Assembly (NCBI RefSeq): GCF_000769655.1
Contig: NZ_CP008887.1
Location: forward strand, 1,550,001 to 1,614,000
Source: Thermococcus eurythermalis
GTDB taxonomy: Archaea > Methanobacteriota_B > Thermococci > Thermococcales > Thermococcaceae
Length of the DNA stretch: 64,000 bases
Direction: 5' to 3'
Position numbers and translations under genes: made by a program. The notes beneath the pieces are model-generated. The model was not told where the DNA came from, did not search any database, and was given only the letters and a program-made list of their open reading frames with translations. This document shows, piece by piece, positions 8,972-17,479 of the stretch (position 1 is the first letter of the stretch; each line of letters begins with the position of its first letter).

Positions 8972-10373
8972 ATGAGACGCTTTAAATGTATAATCCCGCG
9001 TGAATGGTTCCTCCTGGCGCTTATTGGACTTTACTTAGTCCTGACTGTATTCGACCCCGGCCTCCCACGCAGGACTCCACAGCTTATAGACTGGAAGAGC
9101 ATCTCCGCGATAACGGGGCTTCTGACCTCCTTCCCAGCTAGGGCGAGGGTTCGGCTTAACTCCTCGCCATTGATGGGGAGGTTTGCGGGCTCATAATCTA
9201 CTCCCGTTGCCGGTTTCGGTTCAGCCCGCGGGCCGGGTCTTCGGCCCGTTACCCCTACCGGCAAATCCGGATTGGGGTTATTGCTCAAAGGCCACCTTTC
9301 TTTCAATGTTTTTACGGCCACACCAGTCAGCGTGGAATGTGGACGCCTAACGGCGTCGCCTATCCAAACGGATAGGCACTAACGAAACCCCTTCGAGTAG
9401 GGTTTTTTCTCGGTGGCCTCTTCAAGGCCCTATTACGCTGGTAAGGTTTAAAAGGGTTTCGGGGATTTAGTGCTCGTTGGGCAGTTTACTGCATCCCCCC
9501 TAAAGAGCGAGGCTTTCGGAGAAAAATGTAATGCTCTTCATTCTTGTGATTTCGCTTTCCTCGACCGTTATCATGAACGATACCGCAGTGCTGATTTTTA
9601 TTCCTCTCGTCGTTGCGACCTCAGAGCTCGCCAGTGTGGACACTGGAAGGGCCGTGGCGCTCTCCGCTATCGCCGCAAACGTGGGTTCCGCTCTGACTCC
9701 AATAGGCAACCCCCAGAACATCATAATATGGCAGAACCACAGCCTCGGATTCGTGGAGTTCACCAGTTCGATGCTCCCCTTCGTTTCGCTCTGGCTCGCC
9801 GTCCTTTTTGCGTTCGCTCTGAGGATCAAAGACAGGGGGCTCTCGACTGAATGGGTTCCGTCAGTTACTCTCAAAAAGGCCCTCCTTGGCGTTTCCCTTG
9901 TCTCGCTGATAGCCGATGTGCTCCTGATTAGAACAGGGAGGCCAGCACTTGCGCTAATGTTCACGTCCCTTGCGTTTCTCCTAGTTGGCAGGGAAGTGCT
10001 CAGGAAGTTCGACTGGGCGCTTGTTCTGACCTTCGTCTTCATATTCGTTGATTTCAATGAGCTTGCATTTCTACTAAAGGACGCGGGCCTGCAGTTTCCC
10101 CGGGAGGGCTCTGAACTCTTCCTCGTTTCCGCCGTCCTCAGCCAGCTGTTCAGCAACGTCCCTGCAACGGTTCTCCTTCTGGCCGGCAAACCGGAGTGGC
10201 TTCCGCTCTCTCTGGGGGTCAACGTTGGAGGCAACGGCTTCGTCATAGGTTCCCTGGCAAACCTGATAGCACTCAGGATAGCAAGGGTTAGCGTAAAAGA
10301 CTTCCACCGCATCTCCATCCCGTACTTCTCCGTGACCCTTTTGCTTTCAGGGGTTCTTCTAGCCCTTTTTTAA
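8972..10373 (+). pseudogene. Anion permease (SLC13/ArsB-like), interrupted
   Basis: Two fragments of one membrane transporter. The 5' part (8972 to about 9128) gives MRRFKCIIPREWFLLALIG ... LIDWKSISAITGLL, the first helices of an ArsB/SLC13-type permease. The 3' part (about 9504-10373) resumes with RARLSEKNVMLF and continues through STVIMNDTAV, SALTPIGNPQNIIIWQ and NVGGNGFVIGS, motifs of the same family. Between them lie about 370 bases with stops in the reading frame and strong hairpins, so about 30-35 residues of the expected protein are replaced. The 3' part has a possible internal ATG at 9531 but would lack the first helices. The gene is most likely inactive; the intact relatives would be ion-driven anion transporters. 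Confidence 0.75.
9130..9500. mobile_element. Hairpin-rich insertion in the permease gene (possible IS200/IS605-derived MITE)
   Basis: This non-coding block separates the two permease fragments. It holds a run of short perfect hairpins: GACGCC-taac-GGCGTC (9342-9357), GCCTATCC-aaac-GGATAGGC (9358-9377) and AAACCC...GGGTTT (about 9384-9394). A GGGCCG...CGGCCC stem lies near 9227-9246, and a nested ACCCC/CCGG stem near 9250-9280. No transposase is present. On the minus strand a short open stretch (PVGVTGRRPGPRAEPKP...) resembles the tail region found after TnpB-like genes, but this is weak. Single-strand transposons of the IS200/IS605 family use subterminal hairpins, and gene-less derivatives occur in archaea. 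Exact ends are not determined. Confidence 0.45.
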
Positions 10374-10447
10374 TATCTCGAATCCTGCGAAGTTATGAAC
10401 CGTAAACTTTATAAATCAGCTTTGGGGTAGTAAATAACGGGTCGAGC

Positions 10448-10525
10448 AGCGGGGTGGGGCAGCTAGGAGTGCCCGCCGGGCTCATAACCCGGAGGTCGGA
10501 GGTTCAAATCCTCCCCCCGCTACCA
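10448..10525 (+). tRNA. Initiator tRNA-Met (CAT)
   Basis: Full cloverleaf: acceptor stem AGCGGGG/CCCCGCT, anticodon arm CCGGG-CTCATAA-CCCGG with anticodon CAT, T arm GGAGG-TTCAAAT-CCTCC, discriminator A and an encoded CCA (10523-10525). The A1-T72 first pair and the three G-C pairs next to the anticodon loop (GGG/CCC) mark the initiator rather than an elongator. A TATA element (TTTATAAAT, about 10408-10416) lies about 35 bases upstream. No intron is present. Confidence 0.96.
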
Positions 10526-10724
10526 GATTTTCTTCAGCTGTGTGCTTAAGTGTTTGGGGTTTATTCTATAAGTGCCAACTCACGGTTTTGTGCTTTTTAG
10601 TAGGATCACGCAAAGTGGTCACTACAGCTCATCATGTGGTCTTCTCAGGAAAGAAGACAAGGCCTACTCTCCGATTCTTAAAGACCGACAGATGGTAATG
10701 TAAAAAGAGTGTAAAAAGGAAAAC

Positions 10725-11720
10725 TCACTCAATCTTTGCCCCGCAGACCGGACAGAACTTCGCTCCTTCCGGAACTATGTGGCCGTTGGGGCAACGCTTG
10801 ATTTCGTGTCCGCAGTACGGGCAGAAGCGCGCTCCCGGTGGAATGGGCTTGCCGCAGTAGGGGCAGATTTCCTGCTGCGCCGCCGGCTGGGCGGGAGCGG
10901 CTTGCGGGGGCTGCTGAGGAGCCGGAGGAGCGCCGGCGTAGGGCTGAGCCGGCTGGGCCGGTTGGGCAGGTTGCTGGAAGAGCTGGGGAACAAGAACCAT
11001 ACCTGTCCCCATTCCGGCACCAGGGCTCTTGCCGAGCTCGGCCGCGACTTGCTTTACAGTGTCCATTTGCATAACCGCTTGAGCGTTGCCAGTCTGCATG
11101 AGCCAGAAGAGCCTCTGGCGCCACTCGTCAGTGGTGTTTACCCCTTCAATCTTCACATCAACCAGTTCAAGTCCCAGCCTGCGGAAGTCCTCCATGAGCT
11201 TGACCTTGACCTGCGTGCTCACCATGTCAAGGTTCTGGAAGAGGTCAACTATCGAATAAGCCGAGAGATGCTTCATCATGCCCTCGTTGAAGTATGCCCT
11301 GATGAACTTGGTGACGTCTTGGGTGTCGTAGAGACTCTGGCCACCAACGACTTCGGTTATGAATAGCACCGGGTCAGCGACCTTGAACCAGTAGACACCG
11401 TAGTACTTGACTGGGGCAAGCTCCCTAGTCTGGGTCTCTCCTCCGTAGCGTCCCTGGAACTGCTTCATGCTGACGAAGATTACCGTTGCCTTGAAGGGGC
11501 TGTTTGAGCCACCAACGAGCTTGTAGAGAAGCGGTAAGTTCTGAGTGGTCAGCGTGTGCCTTCCGGGCCCGAGGACGTCGTAGATTTTACCGTCGCGCAT
11601 GAAGACTGCCACTTCGTACTCATGGACTATCAGCTGGGCACCCCACTTTATGACCTCGTTGGGGTAGCGCCAGATTATCTCGTCTTCTCCTGGGTTGACC
11701 CACTCTATAACCTGAACCAT
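10725..11720 (-). CDS. SPFH-domain protein with double zinc ribbon (YdjI-like)
   Basis: 331 residues from the ATG at 11720, one base after the upstream stop, with GGGTGAG as ribosome site. Residues up to about 230 are the SPFH/virion-core-protein domain of the YdjI type (WRYPNEVIKWGAQLIVHEYEVAVFMRDGK, GPGRHTL, a coiled GLELVDVKIEGVNT segment). A flexible proline/alanine/glutamine-rich stretch follows, then two zinc ribbons (CPYCGKPIPPGARFCPYCG and CPNGHIVPEGAKFCPVCG). Bacterial YdjI helps anchor PspA at stressed membranes. It is the last gene of a four-gene operon with two zinc-ribbon membrane proteins and a coiled-coil protein, which supports a similar membrane role here. Confidence 0.82.
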   Translation of the reverse strand: MVQVIEWVNPGEDEIIWRYPNEVIKWGAQLIVHEYEVAVFMRDGKIYDVLGPGRHTLTTQNLPLLYKLVGGSNSPFKATVIFVSMKQFQGRYGGETQTRELAPVKYYGVYWFKVADPVLFITEVVGGQSLYDTQDVTKFIRAYFNEGMMKHLSAYSIVDLFQNLDMVSTQVKVKLMEDFRRLGLELVDVKIEGVNTTDEWRQRLFWLMQTGNAQAVMQMDTVKQVAAELGKSPGAGMGTGMVLVPQLFQQPAQPAQPAQPYAGAPPAPQQPPQAAPAQPAAQQEICPYCGKPIPPGARFCPYCGHEIKRCPNGHIVPEGAKFCPVCGAKIE

Positions 11721-11721
11721 T

Positions 11722-12216
11722 TCACTCACCCGCCGCGAAGCTCATCCTCCGGCTCAAAACTTCCTCAAAGTTCACGAGCTTGTCGTCAAGGTTCAAAAGG
11801 GCCATTCCCAGAGCTTGGGGATTGGCAGCCTGTGCGTTTATGTTCTTGGCTTCGTTTAGTATATCCTCCGCCATTTCAATCATCTTTGCGTCGTATTCGA
11901 GAAGCCGTTCGAGCTCTTTCTCCTTGAACTTGACCCTGTCGAAGTAGCCCCGATAGCCCGCCTCGGCATGTCGTATCCTGCTCTCAAGCATCATGAGCTT
12001 CTTTCTTAAGTTCTCAATCCCCATCAGTTGCTGGCAATTTACCATTGCACACCTCTGGAGTGCCCTTTCGAGTTCCCTCTTCGCCTGGGCCAAGGTGTCG
12101 GCGACCTTTCCCCTGACTAGCATATCGTCTTCTCTTATAAGCTCCTTCTTCTTGTAGCCGTGAAATCCGGGGATTATGAGCTCAAGCTTTTCAACTATGG
12201 AAGTTTCTTTCCCCAT
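11722..12216 (-). CDS. Coiled-coil protein, possible PspA/ESCRT-III-like partner
   Basis: 164 residues from the ATG at 12216 (GGAGGTGA five bases upstream). It is almost entirely helical, with long heptad-like stretches (VADTLAQAKRELERALQRCAM, IENLRKKLMMLESRIRHAEAGY, KFKEKELERLLEYDAKMIEMAEDILNEAK). No enzyme motif is seen. It lies between zinc-ribbon membrane-protein genes and the SPFH gene. In Bacillus the equivalent operon begins with pspA, an ESCRT-III-like helical protein, so a membrane-bound polymer-forming role is a reasonable guess. It is shorter than PspA (about 220 residues), and I do not recognise direct family membership. Confidence 0.6.
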   Translation of the reverse strand: MGKETSIVEKLELIIPGFHGYKKKELIREDDMLVRGKVADTLAQAKRELERALQRCAMVNCQQLMGIENLRKKLMMLESRIRHAEAGYRGYFDRVKFKEKELERLLEYDAKMIEMAEDILNEAKNINAQAANPQALGMALLNLDDKLVNFEEVLSRRMSFAAGE

Positions 12217-12234
12217 ACGGTTCACCTCCATACT

Positions 12235-13131
12235 TCATACCGGTTGGAAATAAACGTTACCTCTACCGGCCTTGATTACTTCGCTTATGGTTCTCTTCTT
12301 AACAGAACCTTTCGTAAAGATTCCAGCTCCGCCTGCAAACCCACCTGCCAGTCCTCCGACCAAACCCCAGAGGCTTCCTGTCAGCGCTGATGCAAGAAGA
12401 CCAAGCACAAATCCGGTACCTATCACTCCGGCGCCAAGGAGCGTTGCTTTCTTTCGGGCATCGCTCATAAGGGGGTACTCCCCTCTAATGACCCTTCCAT
12501 CAGTCCCGTCCACGAAGTTGACAAAGTTCTCGCCCCCGTACTCGTAGTGGATTTCCCAGAGGGGATAGTGCACCAATCCTTGGAACTTCACGGTTAGCTC
12601 CAGCTCACCGGCGTATGAGTTTTCTTCGCTGGCTTCCTTTTTCAAAGCGCTCTCAAGCCTTGAGCGTGCTATCGCTTCGGCTTTTTCCCTGTCCAGGTCG
12701 GGCTCGTAGTACTTTCCCTTCTTCACTATACTATCATCGAAGAAGCGCTTTCCCCTGATCGGGAACGGATACTCTGTTAAGAGAGCTACAAAGGGCGACC
12801 CCGCCGGAATGCCAAAGAACTCGACTTCCTCGACTGTCTCATTGCTCTTGCTCCTCCCGTGGAGGTAGAAGAAGTACACTGGAACCCAGTGGAGCTCCTT
12901 TTTCGTGACCTTCGCACCCACTATGTCAGCAGGGGCCCCGTACTGTCTCGAAAGGAACTTGAGGAGCCGCCCTGCCGGGTCTTCCCTCATGGGCGGGAAG
13001 AAGAAGTGGTCAACCCGACTCTCTTCACCGGTGTGAACGTGGAATGTGGTTCCGCAGTAGGGGCAGGTGGCAACGCTCACCGTGTCGGGAACCTTAAACT
13101 TTGCAGAGCATGTGGGACAAGTGACCTCCAT
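12235..13131 (-). CDS. Zinc-ribbon membrane protein (YdjG/TFIIB-ribbon type)
   Basis: 298 residues from the ATG at 13131 (GGGGTGAT upstream). An N-terminal zinc ribbon (CPTCSAKF ... CPYCGTTFHV) leads to a soluble domain of about 170 residues (HWVPVYFFYLHGR, HYPLWEIHYEYGGENFVNFVDGTDGRVI). Near the C-terminus are two glycine-rich membrane helices (LLGAGVIGTGFVLGLLASALTG, LVGGLAGGFAGGAGIF). The strand pattern P-x-W-x-x-x-Y-x-Y-G followed by DG-x-x-G-R-V is shared with the gene upstream, so the two are paralogues. Likely part of a membrane complex with the SPFH protein. Confidence 0.75.
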   Translation of the reverse strand: MEVTCPTCSAKFKVPDTVSVATCPYCGTTFHVHTGEESRVDHFFFPPMREDPAGRLLKFLSRQYGAPADIVGAKVTKKELHWVPVYFFYLHGRSKSNETVEEVEFFGIPAGSPFVALLTEYPFPIRGKRFFDDSIVKKGKYYEPDLDREKAEAIARSRLESALKKEASEENSYAGELELTVKFQGLVHYPLWEIHYEYGGENFVNFVDGTDGRVIRGEYPLMSDARKKATLLGAGVIGTGFVLGLLASALTGSLWGLVGGLAGGFAGGAGIFTKGSVKKRTISEVIKAGRGNVYFQPV

Positions 13132-13135
13132 GCTA

Positions 13136-14125
13136 TCACCCCAGGACGCCTTTCCGCTCCCGTTCAATTCTCTGTCCTTCCAGCACCTTGCTACCCGCGA
13201 ACCAACCCAGTGCCGAGCCGCCAGCTATGGCCAACACCGCGAAGACTGGGGAGCTTGAGAACAGCGCCGCCCCAAAGGATGCTATTGCAATCCCCACCCC
13301 TGCACCTGTAAGGTACTGGGCCTGCCTGAAGACGTTCATCGGCTCGGTCGCGGCGACCCTCTTCCCGTCCCAGCCCGCGAAGACCGTCTGGAATATCGAG
13401 TTCCCATAGCGGTAGTAGACCGTCCACATGGGCAAGAGAACCAGCCTGACGTTCTTCGGCTCATCGGCATGGATATTGAAGCGCTCTATCTTGTCAGACT
13501 TCGCTAGAAAGCGGTTTCTGATGACGTCTATTGCATCCTCACGCATTATCAGCTTTGCCTGCTGTTCGTCCATTTCCGTGTTCAGGATCTCAAGTTTTAT
13601 GCGCTCCCATTCCCCCTCTTCGAGGTCCAGAAGCCTCCTGTCGTCGGGTCGCGTTTTGGAGTAGTGCATAATTAGGTCATCGACACCAAAGCTCTTTACC
13701 TGCCGTCTGGCCGATCCGAGAAGACGGAGGTTCTCGTCAACCCTCTCCGTATAGTGCCTTTCTACCGTTTGACAGTGTGTGTTTCCCTTTGAATCTGTGT
13801 GACACTCCTCCTCACGTTTCATGTACCTTACGGTTCCATAGACGTGCACCAAACCCGTCCAGTGGGGGGAATAGTGGCCCTCTATACCGACTATCTGGAT
13901 TTCGTCCTTAATACTCTTGAGGTCGAAGTCATCATCAACTGCCCTCCAGAAGGCCCGTGCTATGGCGTTTTTATCGATGGATGGGACAATGTATATCTCC
14001 TCGGTCTTGATGTTGCCGCTGACGTGGTTTGGAAAGCCACAGTAGGGACAGACAGCTACAATGGTTTCGGGTGACACCTCAAGGGGTGCACCACACCTTT
14101 CGCACTTAAACGCAAGGGCCTCCAT
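13136..14125 (-). CDS. Zinc-ribbon membrane protein (YdjG-like), first gene of the SPFH operon
   Basis: 329 residues from the ATG at 14125; there is no clear ribosome site and a TATA-like TAAATAC about 38 bases upstream, so the leader is very short. It has a zinc ribbon (CERCGAPL ... CPYCGFP), a central beta-rich domain with an unusual ECHTDSKGNTHCQTVERHYTE loop, a helical part and two C-terminal membrane helices (YLTGAGVGIAIASFGAALF, VFAVLAIAGGSALGWFAG). The LPMWTVYYRYGN ... GWDGKRV motif matches the next gene. It stops four bases before that gene's start, so the operon is tightly coupled. Confidence 0.75.
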   Translation of the reverse strand: MEALAFKCERCGAPLEVSPETIVAVCPYCGFPNHVSGNIKTEEIYIVPSIDKNAIARAFWRAVDDDFDLKSIKDEIQIVGIEGHYSPHWTGLVHVYGTVRYMKREEECHTDSKGNTHCQTVERHYTERVDENLRLLGSARRQVKSFGVDDLIMHYSKTRPDDRRLLDLEEGEWERIKLEILNTEMDEQQAKLIMREDAIDVIRNRFLAKSDKIERFNIHADEPKNVRLVLLPMWTVYYRYGNSIFQTVFAGWDGKRVAATEPMNVFRQAQYLTGAGVGIAIASFGAALFSSSPVFAVLAIAGGSALGWFAGSKVLEGQRIERERKGVLG

Positions 14126-14384: not shown

Positions 14385-14840
14385 ATGGGGTTTATGGACT
14401 CCCTGAAGAGTGCCGCTTCCAGCTTTGTTAAATCCGTACGCCACAAGACCTTCAAGATACCGGCCGAGGAACTGGCCGAAAAGTGGGAGAAGCTCAGGCC
14501 TTACGGAGTTGAGATAGAGGCGGACACAAAATACGGAGGAAAGTACAGCACCTCAGCCTGGTTCGCCATAGAGGACGTCACCGTCAAAGAGGTTGAGGTT
14601 GGGATCTTCAGGAAATCGCGGAAAAAGAAGATCATTGTTAAGTGCTACCGCGAAATAGAGCCCTACGATGAGTATGGCGAGGAAGAAGAGGAGATAGACT
14701 GGTTCGATTTCTCAAGAGAGGAGGAAGAAACGATAGAAAGAAAAGAGGTGACGTTCTGGGAGGGGGACAAGGTCAAGATACGCATGACCGAGGCGGACTA
14801 CGAGAAGATGCTGGCCGAAGTGGGGGAGATTCTAAAGTAA
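14385..14840 (+). CDS. Hypothetical protein, divergent to the SPFH operon
   Basis: 151 residues, start ATG at 14385 with AGGGGGCG upstream. The N-terminus MGFMDSLKSAASSFVKSVRHK could form an amphipathic helix. The rest is a charged beta-rich domain with an acidic stretch (EPYDEYGEEEEEIDWFDFSREEEETIE) and a closing EADYEKMLAEVGEILK helix. I do not recognise the family. Position opposite the zinc-ribbon/SPFH operon and upstream of a lipoprotein gene hints at an envelope-related role, but no motif shows it. Confidence 0.6.
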   Translation: MGFMDSLKSAASSFVKSVRHKTFKIPAEELAEKWEKLRPYGVEIEADTKYGGKYSTSAWFAIEDVTVKEVEVGIFRKSRKKKIIVKCYREIEPYDEYGEEEEEIDWFDFSREEEETIERKEVTFWEGDKVKIRMTEADYEKMLAEVGEILK

Positions 14841-14923
14841 AAAGTTCAGGTCAGCAAGCAGGTTGGCCATCTTGGAGATAATGTGCTTTCTTTTCTTTCC
14901 ACTCACCGTTGGGGGTGGGCAGA

Positions 14924-17479
14924 TTGAGGAAAGCCCTAATAGCGTTGTTGATAGTAGGGGTGGTACTGGTAGCGGGTTGCATGGGCGGAACGAGCGAGAA
15001 GTCCACCGGGGGAGGGCAAACTGGAACTTCTCAGCAAACAACGGCCGGGGGAAATCAAGGCACAACGGGGGAATCGCCGTCTGAGAGCGGGGGGACGGTT
15101 AGCAGTCCTGAAGAAATCGGCCAGAGGGGACACGTTGAGCTATTCAACGAGAACGGCCTCAAAGGAATAACGGTCCACGTTGACGGCTCTTCATGGATGA
15201 GCAATGGCAACGCCTACAACACACTCTTTGACTACGCCCCGATGTTCTACTCGGGAGGGAACCTTTACATCTATCAGTACTCTGACGAGAGCTTTTCACA
15301 GGTGTATACGGACGGCACCTTAGAGGTCTACCCCTTCATCGTGCTCAAGATGCCAGTTAAAGGAGTGGAGTTCACCTTCGCCGGCCCGCAGGACTCGATA
15401 CTAACCGTTGGGGCCGACGGAAAGCTCTACCTCGTCGTGTACGACCTGGACGAGAGGAAAAGCTGGCCGAGCGAAGATGACAGGAAGGTCGTCTACTTCT
15501 ACAAGACCAAACGGGTCGAGAGCTGGGATTTGAACGTTAAACACGTGGCGGCGGGTTCCGAAAAGGACGATGAGTACGTCTATTACGTCGCATGGAACGG
15601 CAACGAGGTTTACGTAATTGGCTGGGACTACGAGAATCTCCTCGACTTCACGAAGGGGGAAGGCCAGAAAGCCGAAGCCAAAAGGTTCTCATTTGACAAC
15701 GTAAGGGACGTGCTGGTTGGAAAGCAGGGCATCTACGTCCTGAGTGGCGGAAAGCTCTACGTCATAAACACCGTTGATGGCCCGGAGGGAGTTAAGGTCT
15801 CAGCGGAAGTTGACGTCGGTGAAAACGCCCAGCTATCGCTTGATGAGGGAGGTGACTACGACCTTGTTTCGGTCTACGACGGGAAGACCCTCAAGCTGAT
15901 GGTCTTCGAGGACGGAAAACTCGACGATGATTATCAGGCTGAGATTAAGCTCGAAGGGTACGAGAGCGTTTATGTCTACCTCCCGAGCAGTGGGGTTGAA
16001 TTCGTGGCGCTGAAAGGAAACAGGGCTTACTTCTACACCTTCGACTTCACTTATCACGAAACGACCCTGGTCGGGTATCTCGACCTCCCAGTCAAGCCGG
16101 TGTGGGCCTCCGGCCACATTGACGGCTGGGACGTGGGGGTCATAGCCTTCTGGGGCGATGATGGGAAGTACTACAGGCTGTTCGAGGTTCTAAAGACCGA
16201 GCAAACGGGTGAATCTCAGAGTGGTGAATCCGAAGGCACGGCCGAAGAGTCAGGGGGCTCGGGAACTTCATCAGGAACCTCAGGAGAATCGGGAGGGAGT
16301 ACTTCAACAGGAACTTCGGAAAGCGGGCAGGGAACAGAGGCTTCTTTTGAAGACCAGCTCAAAAACTTCCTTGAAAACGCCTACACGGTGGAAGGGCTCG
16401 TTTACGCCAAAGAGGGCTACAGCTACCGCGGGATAAAGATAACACCAAGGACAGGCAGGCTCTACTACTTCCCGTACGGCTATGAAAACACCTTATTCCT
16501 CCTTGACGGTGATAAGGTCATCCGGATAGTCCCCTGGGACCAGGACTTTTTCGACGGGAAAACGGATAACCCCAACATAGACCCGCACGATACCGGGAGT
16601 GTGAGGATAACCGTCCTCCCCACAAAGACTAAACTATACTACGCGATACCTAACGGAGACTACGCGGCTATGGTTGACGAGAACGGAAAGCTCCACGTAC
16701 TGATGGGCCTTGAGTGGCACTCCGGTAATGATGTAGAATGGAACACCTTCAAGAGTGACGTCGTTTACGACTTTGACGCCTCTGGAGTGCTCGTCCAGTA
16801 CTTCTGGTCGAACTACCTCTTCTATGCATGGAAGGACAACGAGCTCAGAATTTATGTCTATGATTCTGATACGGCCTACAAGATGTGGGATGAAGGGGCC
16901 AGCATAACGGTCGAGCCAAGGGTTTACAGCCTGCCAGACAGGATAAGGGAGGTCAACCCATACATAGCGGAGGACTTCATTGTCGTTCTAACCGATGAGG
17001 GAACCTACCTCGTCCCGAATCCCGTTGGCCACTATGGGGAGGACACCAACGTTTACAGAATAGACGACCGCGTGGATTTGATTGGTGCCTACCACTACTG
17101 GTACCTGAACGAACTGCTCGCCTACTCAAACGGTCAGCTCTACGGCCTTGCGCCGGACTACTCGGACACCGAGAAAACGATGACCGTCGAGAAGGGATCC
17201 TACGTTTCCATATCAAACGTCGTCGGCCTCTACGGGGACTACGGTGGTGAAGAATTCATAGCACTGTCGCTCAGTGACGGAAAGCTCCCGGTTTACCAGC
17301 ACACGTGGAACGACCAGAAGCGGGCCTATGAGTTCGCCCTCAGGAAGACGTTCTACCTCCCGGCACCGCTTGTGAAGTTCACCTTTGACTACAGGCCGGA
17401 ATGGGACTGGATTAAGGTTCTTGGCCTGGGAGCTGATGGCTCCTTCTACAACTTCGAAATACAAGGAGGTGGTAGCTGA
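14924..17479 (+). CDS. Large lipoprotein with two beta-rich domains and a Ser/Gly/Thr linker
   Basis: 851 residues from a TTG at 14924, chosen because GGGGGTG lies seven bases upstream and the chain then reads MRKALIALLIVGVVLVAGC, a signal peptide with a lipobox cysteine at 19. After a low-complexity stretch come two long beta-rich domains (about 60-430 and 490-850). They are full of Y-V-x-G-x-K-L-Y-type strands that suggest beta-propellers, and a serine/glycine/threonine/glutamate linker (about 431-480) joins them. It is presumably anchored outside the cell. No catalytic motif is recognised. Its stop overlaps the start of the next gene (TGATG). Confidence 0.75.
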   Translation: MRKALIALLIVGVVLVAGCMGGTSEKSTGGGQTGTSQQTTAGGNQGTTGESPSESGGTVSSPEEIGQRGHVELFNENGLKGITVHVDGSSWMSNGNAYNTLFDYAPMFYSGGNLYIYQYSDESFSQVYTDGTLEVYPFIVLKMPVKGVEFTFAGPQDSILTVGADGKLYLVVYDLDERKSWPSEDDRKVVYFYKTKRVESWDLNVKHVAAGSEKDDEYVYYVAWNGNEVYVIGWDYENLLDFTKGEGQKAEAKRFSFDNVRDVLVGKQGIYVLSGGKLYVINTVDGPEGVKVSAEVDVGENAQLSLDEGGDYDLVSVYDGKTLKLMVFEDGKLDDDYQAEIKLEGYESVYVYLPSSGVEFVALKGNRAYFYTFDFTYHETTLVGYLDLPVKPVWASGHIDGWDVGVIAFWGDDGKYYRLFEVLKTEQTGESQSGESEGTAEESGGSGTSSGTSGESGGSTSTGTSESGQGTEASFEDQLKNFLENAYTVEGLVYAKEGYSYRGIKITPRTGRLYYFPYGYENTLFLLDGDKVIRIVPWDQDFFDGKTDNPNIDPHDTGSVRITVLPTKTKLYYAIPNGDYAAMVDENGKLHVLMGLEWHSGNDVEWNTFKSDVVYDFDASGVLVQYFWSNYLFYAWKDNELRIYVYDSDTAYKMWDEGASITVEPRVYSLPDRIREVNPYIAEDFIVVLTDEGTYLVPNPVGHYGEDTNVYRIDDRVDLIGAYHYWYLNELLAYSNGQLYGLAPDYSDTEKTMTVEKGSYVSISNVVGLYGDYGGEEFIALSLSDGKLPVYQHTWNDQKRAYEFALRKTFYLPAPLVKFTFDYRPEWDWIKVLGLGADGSFYNFEIQGGGS

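What the first reader, a model, noticed from the sequence alone, without database searches (positions are those of the whole stretch)
10725..14125. Archaeal operon resembling bacterial pspA-ydjGHI membrane-stress genes
Four tightly spaced genes encode two paralogous zinc-ribbon membrane proteins, a 164-residue coiled-coil protein and an SPFH protein with a double zinc ribbon. In Bacillus, YdjG (zinc ribbon, membrane) and YdjI (SPFH, zinc ribbons) anchor the ESCRT-III-like PspA. The coiled-coil gene sits where such a partner would be expected but is not a recognised PspA. This suggests an archaeal version of a membrane-protection module with a new filament-type component.
Basis: partly seen in the sequence, partly recalled or inferred. 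Interest (0 to 1): 0.72.

Follow-up and report, generated by a model that had tools for sequence, protein, structure and literature searches.

The report
Archaeal membrane-scaffold operon without PspA
Four neighbouring genes in a heat-loving archaeon encode a membrane-scaffold (SPFH) protein, two membrane anchors and a small helical partner that travels almost inseparably with the scaffold across archaea, so the partner is probably a working part of the machine; it is not the PspA protein seen in the bacterial counterpart, and no test of its function was found.

Summary
On the minus strand of a Thermococcus-type genome, ZnR1 (329 aa), ZnR2 (298 aa), a helical protein CC (164 aa) and a soluble SPFH protein with zinc ribbons lie 4, 18 and 1 bases apart. 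In Thermococcales, CC and this SPFH occur in the same 51 of 94 genomes, and 48 of those 51 keep all four genes in order. Across 250 archaea, CC is in 68 genomes and all 68 have the strong SPFH match. Of the two SPFH-only genomes, one is cut by a contig end. CC directly precedes SPFH in 65 of 68. ZnR-type proteins follow CC/SPFH too.

CC is not PspA or Snf7. Profile comparison gives 2.5% and 0.7% probability, at the level of reversed controls, while PspA against Snf7 gives 93%. The CC model is a four-helix bundle with two conserved loops. No PspA passes the cut-off in 94 Thermococcales, and the PspA-carrying archaea sampled lack this SPFH. YdjH-type TPM is absent from this genome.

Best reading: a YdjI-type SPFH scaffold held at the membrane by ZnR proteins, with CC as its dedicated adaptor. 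It works like pspA-ydjGHI in part but is not that system. Whether CC forms filaments is untested.

The parts
13136..14125 (-). ZnR1: 329-aa zinc-ribbon protein with a C-terminal double membrane segment (about residues 271-312); paralogue of ZnR2
12235..13131 (-). ZnR2: 298-aa zinc-ribbon protein, PepSY/YpeB-like middle part (weak), C-terminal membrane hairpin (about residues 223-275)
   Evidence: 4-base gap after ZnR1
11722..12216 (-). CC: 164-aa helical protein, predicted four-helix bundle; conserved loops PG[FY]xGYKxKE (residues 16-25) and HAxxGYxGxFD (83-93)
   Evidence: homologues in 68 of 250 archaeal genomes
10725..11720 (-). SPFH: 331-aa soluble SPFH/Band_7_1 protein with Pro-rich linker and C-terminal double zinc ribbon; its ATG follows the CC stop by one base

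Best explanation
The operon encodes a membrane-microdomain scaffold built on a soluble, YdjI-type SPFH protein. ZnR1 and ZnR2 are membrane-anchored zinc-ribbon proteins that hold the SPFH assembly at the membrane and probably carry the sensing surface. CC is the dedicated partner of the SPFH protein: a small four-helix adaptor whose two conserved loops, predicted to lie at the same end of the bundle, dock on the SPFH assembly or link it to the ZnR anchors. Shown: gene order, co-occurrence, domain make-up, no PspA or TPM found in this genome, no sequence-profile kinship between CC and PspA/Snf7. Inferred: physical binding, membrane recruitment, and a role in membrane organisation under stress.
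For: CC and the SPFH occur in the same 51 of 94 Thermococcales. Over 250 archaea, CC is in 68 and strong PF13421 in 70, and every CC genome is among the 70. Of the two exceptions, G145 is cut at the contig end exactly where CC lies in its relative G123; G155 is a real one. Outside the order, 17 of 17 CC genomes have the SPFH and 2 of 139 others do. CC directly precedes SPFH in 65 of 68 genomes. A zinc ribbon is fused to the N-terminus of CC in L080 and L081. ZnR relatives outside the order occur in 11 of 156 genomes, all 11 with this SPFH. SPFH and CC lack membrane segments, ZnR1 and ZnR2 have them. YdjI is likewise likely soluble and needs YdjG and YdjH for membrane recruitment (PMC8581546, section read).
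Against: No interaction, localisation or expression data exist here. The similarity of ZnR2 to PepSY is weak (11 of 20 members, best E 0.0016), and YdjG, YdjH and YdjI sequences were not on hand for direct comparison. CC and SPFH are unlinked in G165, G185 and G199. Two Thermococcus genomes (G045, G054) pair CC-SPFH with other zinc-ribbon genes, so the ZnR1/ZnR2 anchors are replaceable.
Confidence: 0.55

Rival explanations
1. CC is a functional stand-in for PspA: it polymerises on the membrane, recruited by the SPFH protein, and remodels or seals it, although it is not an ESCRT-III homologue.
For: CC takes the place that PspA has in the bacterial operon. PspA passes the family cut-off in 0 of 94 Thermococcales, and in 250 archaea the 8 PspA genomes have neither CC nor a strong PF13421 match. 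A short N-terminal helix (residues 7-14) could be amphipathic.
Against: The model is a compact four-helix bundle. There is no profile similarity to PspA or Snf7. G123, G165 and G185 carry both CC and Snf7, so CC is not simply a replacement for ESCRT-III. Divergent ESCRT-III genes that PF03357 misses may exist in some Thermococcales (PMC10936438, passages).
Confidence: 0.15
2. A membrane proteostasis module: the SPFH ring with its partners controls a membrane protease or chaperones membrane proteins, as HflK/C does for FtsH.
For: [quoted passage not shown] PepSY-type domains are described as protease inhibitors (PMC6393860 passages), and ZnR2 resembles PepSY weakly.
Against: I saw no protease gene recurring as part of the set in the neighbourhoods listed.
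Confidence: 0.15
3. A defence or cell-suicide module in which CC is a membrane-disturbing four-helix bundle held in check by the SPFH assembly.
For: Structural neighbours include the Rx coiled-coil domain (Z 11.2) and the MLKL executioner domain (Z 8.9). Distribution is patchy (51 of 94 genomes). ZnR1-ZnR2 cassettes appear to have been exchanged between lineages.
Against: These Z values lie within the background for helical bundles stated by the tool. PADLOC finds nothing in the four window proteins. The SPFH domain is highly conserved (mean distance 0.067) and many of the 17 loci compared share flanking genes, unlike a defence island.
Confidence: 0.06

Closest known systems
Bacillus subtilis pspA-ydjGHI
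   Same: Tight operon joining a soluble SPFH protein with zinc ribbons (YdjI), a zinc-ribbon membrane protein with a YpeB-related domain (YdjG) and a helical partner (PMC8581546 sections read; PMC11237479 passages)
   Different: No PspA and no TPM/YdjH found in this genome; two ZnR paralogues instead; the helical partner CC is unrelated to PspA by profile comparison
LIMLP_15305 family (NCBIfam NF047596, named after a Leptospira protein)
   Same: Same superfamily as CC: 29 of 30 archaeal members match the model at E <= 0.01, best 9.7e-21
   Different: The window protein scores 27 bits against a cut-off of 210; no function is given, and the Leptospira gene context was not seen
Archaeal Meth_adaptin ESCRT loci (PMC10936438, passages)
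   Same: An SPFH protein with coiled-coil and zinc ribbon beside zinc-ribbon membrane-traffic genes
   Different: Those loci centre on Vps4 and ESCRT-III; none of the four window proteins matches these families in Pfam

Membership tests
pspA-ydjGHI membrane-stress module | PspA (PF04012) present | tested here: not met
   0 matches in own genome at E <= 0.001; 0 of 94 Thermococcales over the cut-off; B. subtilis control rings
pspA-ydjGHI membrane-stress module | YdjI: soluble SPFH protein with C-terminal zinc ribbons | tested here: met
   PF13421 115 bits, DZR 40 bits, no membrane segment; PF13421 also rings in B. subtilis. Direct alignment with YdjI was not made
pspA-ydjGHI membrane-stress module | YdjG: zinc ribbon, YpeB-related domain, membrane segment | tested here: inconclusive
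   Zinc ribbon and membrane hairpin present; PepSY in 11 of 20 ZnR2 members, best E 0.0016
pspA-ydjGHI membrane-stress module | YdjH: TPM domain protein | tested here: not met
   PF04536: 0 matches in own genome; 8 of 14 controls ring, B. subtilis among them
pspA-ydjGHI membrane-stress module | Membrane recruitment and membrane-stress phenotype | not testable with these tools
   No experimental data
ESCRT-III / PspA / Vipp1 (for CC) | Sequence profile similarity | tested here: not met
   hhalign probability 2.5 (PspA) and 0.7 (Snf7), reversed controls 0.3 to 3.0, PspA against Snf7 93.1. Against this: single hmmsearch E-values reached 0.0002 for the best CC with the Snf7 profile and 1 of 30 members hit Pfam Snf7 at E 0.063
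ESCRT-III / PspA / Vipp1 (for CC) | ESCRT-III fold with long alpha1-alpha2 hairpin | tested here: inconclusive
   Model: helices 24-58, 64-82, 99-128, 133-161; no ESCRT-III chain among the rows shown, which does not exclude the fold
SPFH superfamily, Band_7_1 | PF13421 above the curated cut-off | tested here: met
   115.1 bits, cut-off 24
LIMLP_15305 family (for CC) | NF047596 score of 210 bits or more | tested here: not met
   27.1 bits; the wider family matches below the cut-off
Known anti-phage defence systems | Match to a PADLOC model | tested here: not met
   0 families at E <= 0.01 for the four window proteins

The most novel reading that the evidence does not exclude
CC defines an unrecognised class of membrane-acting helical proteins, unrelated to ESCRT-III/PspA, that is the general partner of YdjI-type SPFH scaffolds in archaea lacking PspA. 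Together they would form an independent membrane-repair or vesicle-budding machine, possibly one behind the vesicles shed by Thermococcus.
Probability: 0.12. Interest if true: 0.85.

Novelty: new variant of a known kind. Interest (0 to 1): 0.5.

Why it matters
SPFH scaffolds are known in all domains of life, but what they recruit is mostly unknown (own knowledge). In the archaea sampled here, a YdjI-type SPFH is accompanied in 68 of 70 genomes by CC, a protein with no Pfam family, and in none by PspA. That gives a specific, testable partner. How membranes are repaired or budded in archaea without PspA is open, and Thermococcus is genetically tractable (plasmid transformation of T. kodakarensis is reported in PMC6524685, passages).

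Tried and rejected
CC as distant PspA or Snf7: rejected by profile-profile comparison with reversed controls. A first run used wrong-strand ORFs for several PspA and Snf7 rows and is discarded.

Fold of CC: best Foldseek E 0.1, best VIA-align row IncA Z 14.3, rmsd 2.6, 139 aligned. Helical-bundle background is of that size, so no kinship is claimed. No ESCRT-III chain is among the 50 rows shown.

ZnR2 fold: best rows Z 7.5 (membrane hairpin only) and 5.4 for a Clostridioides lipoprotein, 4exr; the Foldseek rows with probability near 1 are zinc-ribbon pieces of about 40 columns. No fold assignment beyond the zinc ribbon and the weak PepSY signal.

Divergent gene up151 (14385-14840, plus strand) as part of the module: rejected. 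Its relatives were seen in four loci (L036, L037, L043, L047), all several kilobases from the operon.

Bacterial members: plasmid tblastn with the window CC found one weak place (E 0.3) in Polymorphobacter. The gene there is CC-like by profile (E 3.9e-10) and abuts a divergent SPFH gene. Three other CC queries against plasmids found nothing. Viral contigs: none.

Defence: PADLOC nothing in the four window proteins; of three further neighbour proteins from other loci in that call, one had a weak match (E 0.0018).

Solved structures by sequence: nothing below E 0.027 for the CC profile and nothing for the SPFH protein at E <= 0.01.

Print: no paper describing this CC family or dyad turned up in searches (open-licence PMC only; listings and start of abstracts seen, passages or sections of the papers cited). 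PMC7567364 merely lists LIMLP_15305 beside an RNA.
Full report
WHAT IS THERE. The window lies in a 2.1-Mb genome (G000, C1:1550001-1614000) whose relatives in the named contig collection are Thermococcus. On the minus strand, four genes follow each other: ZnR1 14125-13136 (329 aa), ZnR2 13131-12235 (298 aa), CC 12216-11722 (164 aa) and SPFH 11720-10725 (331 aa), with gaps of 4, 18 and 1 bases. SPFH matches Band_7_1 (115 bits, cut-off 24), Band_7 and DZR. ZnR1 and ZnR2 are paralogues (24% identity, E 3e-8). Each has an N-terminal zinc ribbon and a C-terminal hydrophobic stretch long enough for two membrane passes; CC and SPFH have no such stretch.

CONSERVATION IN THE ORDER. CC is found in 51 of 94 Thermococcales genomes. 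The SPFH domain is found in 51 of 94, and I read the two lists as the same 51 genomes. All four genes stand in the same order in 48 of the 51: 30 in L001-L030, 14 in L044-L057, three in L039-L041, which I take by contig and position to be G050, G055 and G056, and G053 by its coordinates. In one of these, G069 (L053), ZnR1 is split by an insertion and SPFH holds two in-frame stops. G046 is cut by its contig start. G045 and G054 carry a divergent CC next to SPFH with a different set of neighbours and, in place of the SPFH zinc ribbons, another C-terminus.

THE CC-SPFH DYAD ACROSS ARCHAEA. A profile of CC finds 57 of 115 genomes of the phylum and 68 of 250 archaeal relatives. Of these 250, 94 belong to the order, so 17 of the 156 genomes outside it have CC. 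PF13421 gives strong matches (E <= 7.6e-17) in 70 of 250 and only weak, partial ones (E >= 3.6e-8) in 45 more, which I take for ordinary stomatins. All 68 CC genomes are among the 70. The two others are G145, where the contig ends about 100 bases beyond SPFH, at the spot where its relative G123 has CC, and G155, where SPFH has no CC beside it. Outside the order, the 2x2 table of CC and SPFH is 17, 0, 2, 137 (I read the sets off the lists). CC directly precedes SPFH in all 51 genomes of the order and in 14 of the 17 outside; in G165, G185 and G199 the two are apart. In L080 and L081 a zinc ribbon is fused to the front of CC. Upstream neighbours vary: a ZnR2-like protein in L073, a 516-aa zinc-ribbon protein in L075, an arrestin-like protein with a zinc ribbon in L071 (Arrestin_N E 0.001, below its cut-off). 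In L076 the ZnR1-ZnR2 pair stands on the opposite strand about 2 kb away.

ZnR PROTEINS. ZnR2-type proteins occur in 63 of 250 genomes: 52 in the order (49 with CC, and G052, G061 and G064 without) and 11 outside, all 11 with the strong SPFH. In one of the 11, G123, the match holds two stop codons. The profile also picks up ZnR1. Several Thermococcus genomes have a second ZnR1-ZnR2 pair; in the three looked at there is no CC or SPFH beside it. The ZnR2 model (pLDDT 78, pTM 0.72) has the zinc ribbon, a beta-rich middle part and a two-helix C-terminal hairpin of low confidence. PepSY (peptidase propeptide and YPEB domain) hits 11 of 20 members, best E 0.0016. YdjG is described as zinc ribbons plus a YpeB-related domain and a membrane segment (PMC11237479, passages).

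CC IS NOT PspA OR Snf7. PF04012 passes its cut-off in 0 of 94 Thermococcales, while 9 of 14 control genomes ring; there are sub-threshold matches in 87 of 94, many of them to frames of about 1,190 codons, which I take for SMC-type coiled coils. In the 250 relatives, 8 genomes have PspA; none of these has CC or a strong PF13421 match. Snf7 is in 8 of 250 genomes, three of them with CC. hhalign of the 30-row CC alignment gives probability 2.5 against archaeal PspA (8 rows) and 0.7 against Snf7 (16 rows); controls with one side reversed give 0.3 to 3.0, and PspA against Snf7 gives 93.1. Against this, single-sequence searches gave E 0.0002 for the best CC with the Snf7 profile in a set of 54 sequences, and one of 30 members hit Pfam Snf7 at E 0.063; I take both for the kind of match coiled coils give by chance. 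The CC model (24 sequences, pLDDT 84, pTM 0.80) has helices 7-14, 24-58, 64-82, 99-128 and 133-161. Its nearest solved structures are assorted helical bundles (IncA Z 14.3, Rx coiled-coil 11.2, MLKL 8.9), within the background for helical bundles. The residues conserved over the family sit in and just after the loop before helix 1 (P16, G17, G20, Y21, K22, K24, E25, R28) and in the loop after helix 2 (A84, G87, Y88, G90), plus others in the helices such as R35, E99, D109 and R157. In an up-and-down bundle these two loops lie at the same end, which is my inference from the topology, and would make one docking site.

IS CC KNOWN? Of 30 members, the best Pfam match is E 6.8e-5 (ANG-1, 6 members), and the window protein passes no Pfam cut-off. 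NCBIfam NF047596, named after Leptospira LIMLP_15305, matches 29 of 30 members at E <= 0.01, best 9.7e-21, but the window protein is far under the cut-off (27 against 210 bits). One bacterial plasmid (Polymorphobacter) carries a CC-like gene right after a divergent SPFH gene. So the family is not confined to archaea, but its bacterial spread was not measured.

HOW IT PROBABLY WORKS. In B. [quoted passage not shown] By analogy, the soluble SPFH protein here is held at the membrane by ZnR1 and ZnR2, and CC is its dedicated partner. Neither PspA nor a TPM protein (YdjH) was found in this genome, so it is not the pspA-ydjGHI system. The adaptor reading of CC is preferred over the filament reading because of the compact model and the lack of ESCRT-III similarity, but nothing here tests assembly.

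MODULARITY. The SPFH domain is far more conserved within Thermococcales (mean distance 0.067 over 20 loci) than CC (0.315), ZnR1 (0.309) or ZnR2 (0.318). Trees of 42 loci disagree: CC+SPFH puts the window group (window, L005, L010, L011) with L002-L009, while ZnR2 puts it with L051, L029, L046-L049, L052-L054 and L057. Forcing the other grouping lowers the log-likelihood by 37 (ZnR2, p-AU 0.003) and 70 (CC+SPFH, p-AU 6e-5); the groups were named after the trees were seen, and in the CC+SPFH tree the 11-row group has support of only 75 (the 15-row group that holds it has 99). ZnR1 and ZnR2 distances go together (r 0.95) more than either does with CC (0.67, 0.69) or SPFH (0.74, 0.73). So the ZnR pair appears to have been exchanged as a cassette, as one would expect of a sensing or anchoring part in front of a constant CC-SPFH core.

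LIMITS. The archaeal set is one genome per species and 61 of the 250 are from one genus, so counts are not independent. Draft genomes can hide genes at contig ends. PF03357 may miss divergent euryarchaeal ESCRT-III: PMC10936438 (passages) reports ESCRT components in some Thermococcales, so I do not claim that this genome has no ESCRT-III. That most Thermococcus strains screened release vesicles, and that they lack CdvB homologues, is from PMC6524685 (passages); a link of this operon to vesicles is speculation.

Noticed in passing
L002-L011 and window 12235-14125: The ZnR1-ZnR2 pair has a different history from CC-SPFH, as if swapped as a cassette between Thermococcus lineages.
   Followed up: yes
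L146:6077-8052, L147:6482-8472, L148:3378-5311: A second, diverged ZnR1-ZnR2 pair without CC or SPFH nearby in several Thermococcus genomes.
   Followed up: partly
L053 (genome G069), about 9605-11033: ZnR1 is split by an insertion holding a 348-aa ORF (looks like an IS605-type TnpB, from recall), and the SPFH gene of the same genome has two in-frame TAG codons: a decaying copy of the operon.
   Followed up: partly
L058:7679-11932 and L059:3398-7474: Alternative operon in two Thermococcus genomes: divergent CC, SPFH with a different C-terminus, a TPR-like protein and a 503-aa zinc-ribbon protein.
   Followed up: partly
L071:7088-9196 and L072:6764-9003: CC-SPFH preceded by a small arrestin-like protein ending in a zinc ribbon.
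   Followed up: no
L143:5839-7014 (genome G155): The one strong YdjI-type SPFH in the archaeal sample with no CC beside it or elsewhere by profile.
   Followed up: partly
window 14385-17479, plus strand: Divergent neighbours: a 151-aa protein without family and an 856-aa secreted-looking protein with Ser/Thr/Gly-rich stretches; the 151-aa gene is not linked to the operon in the relatives examined.
   Followed up: partly
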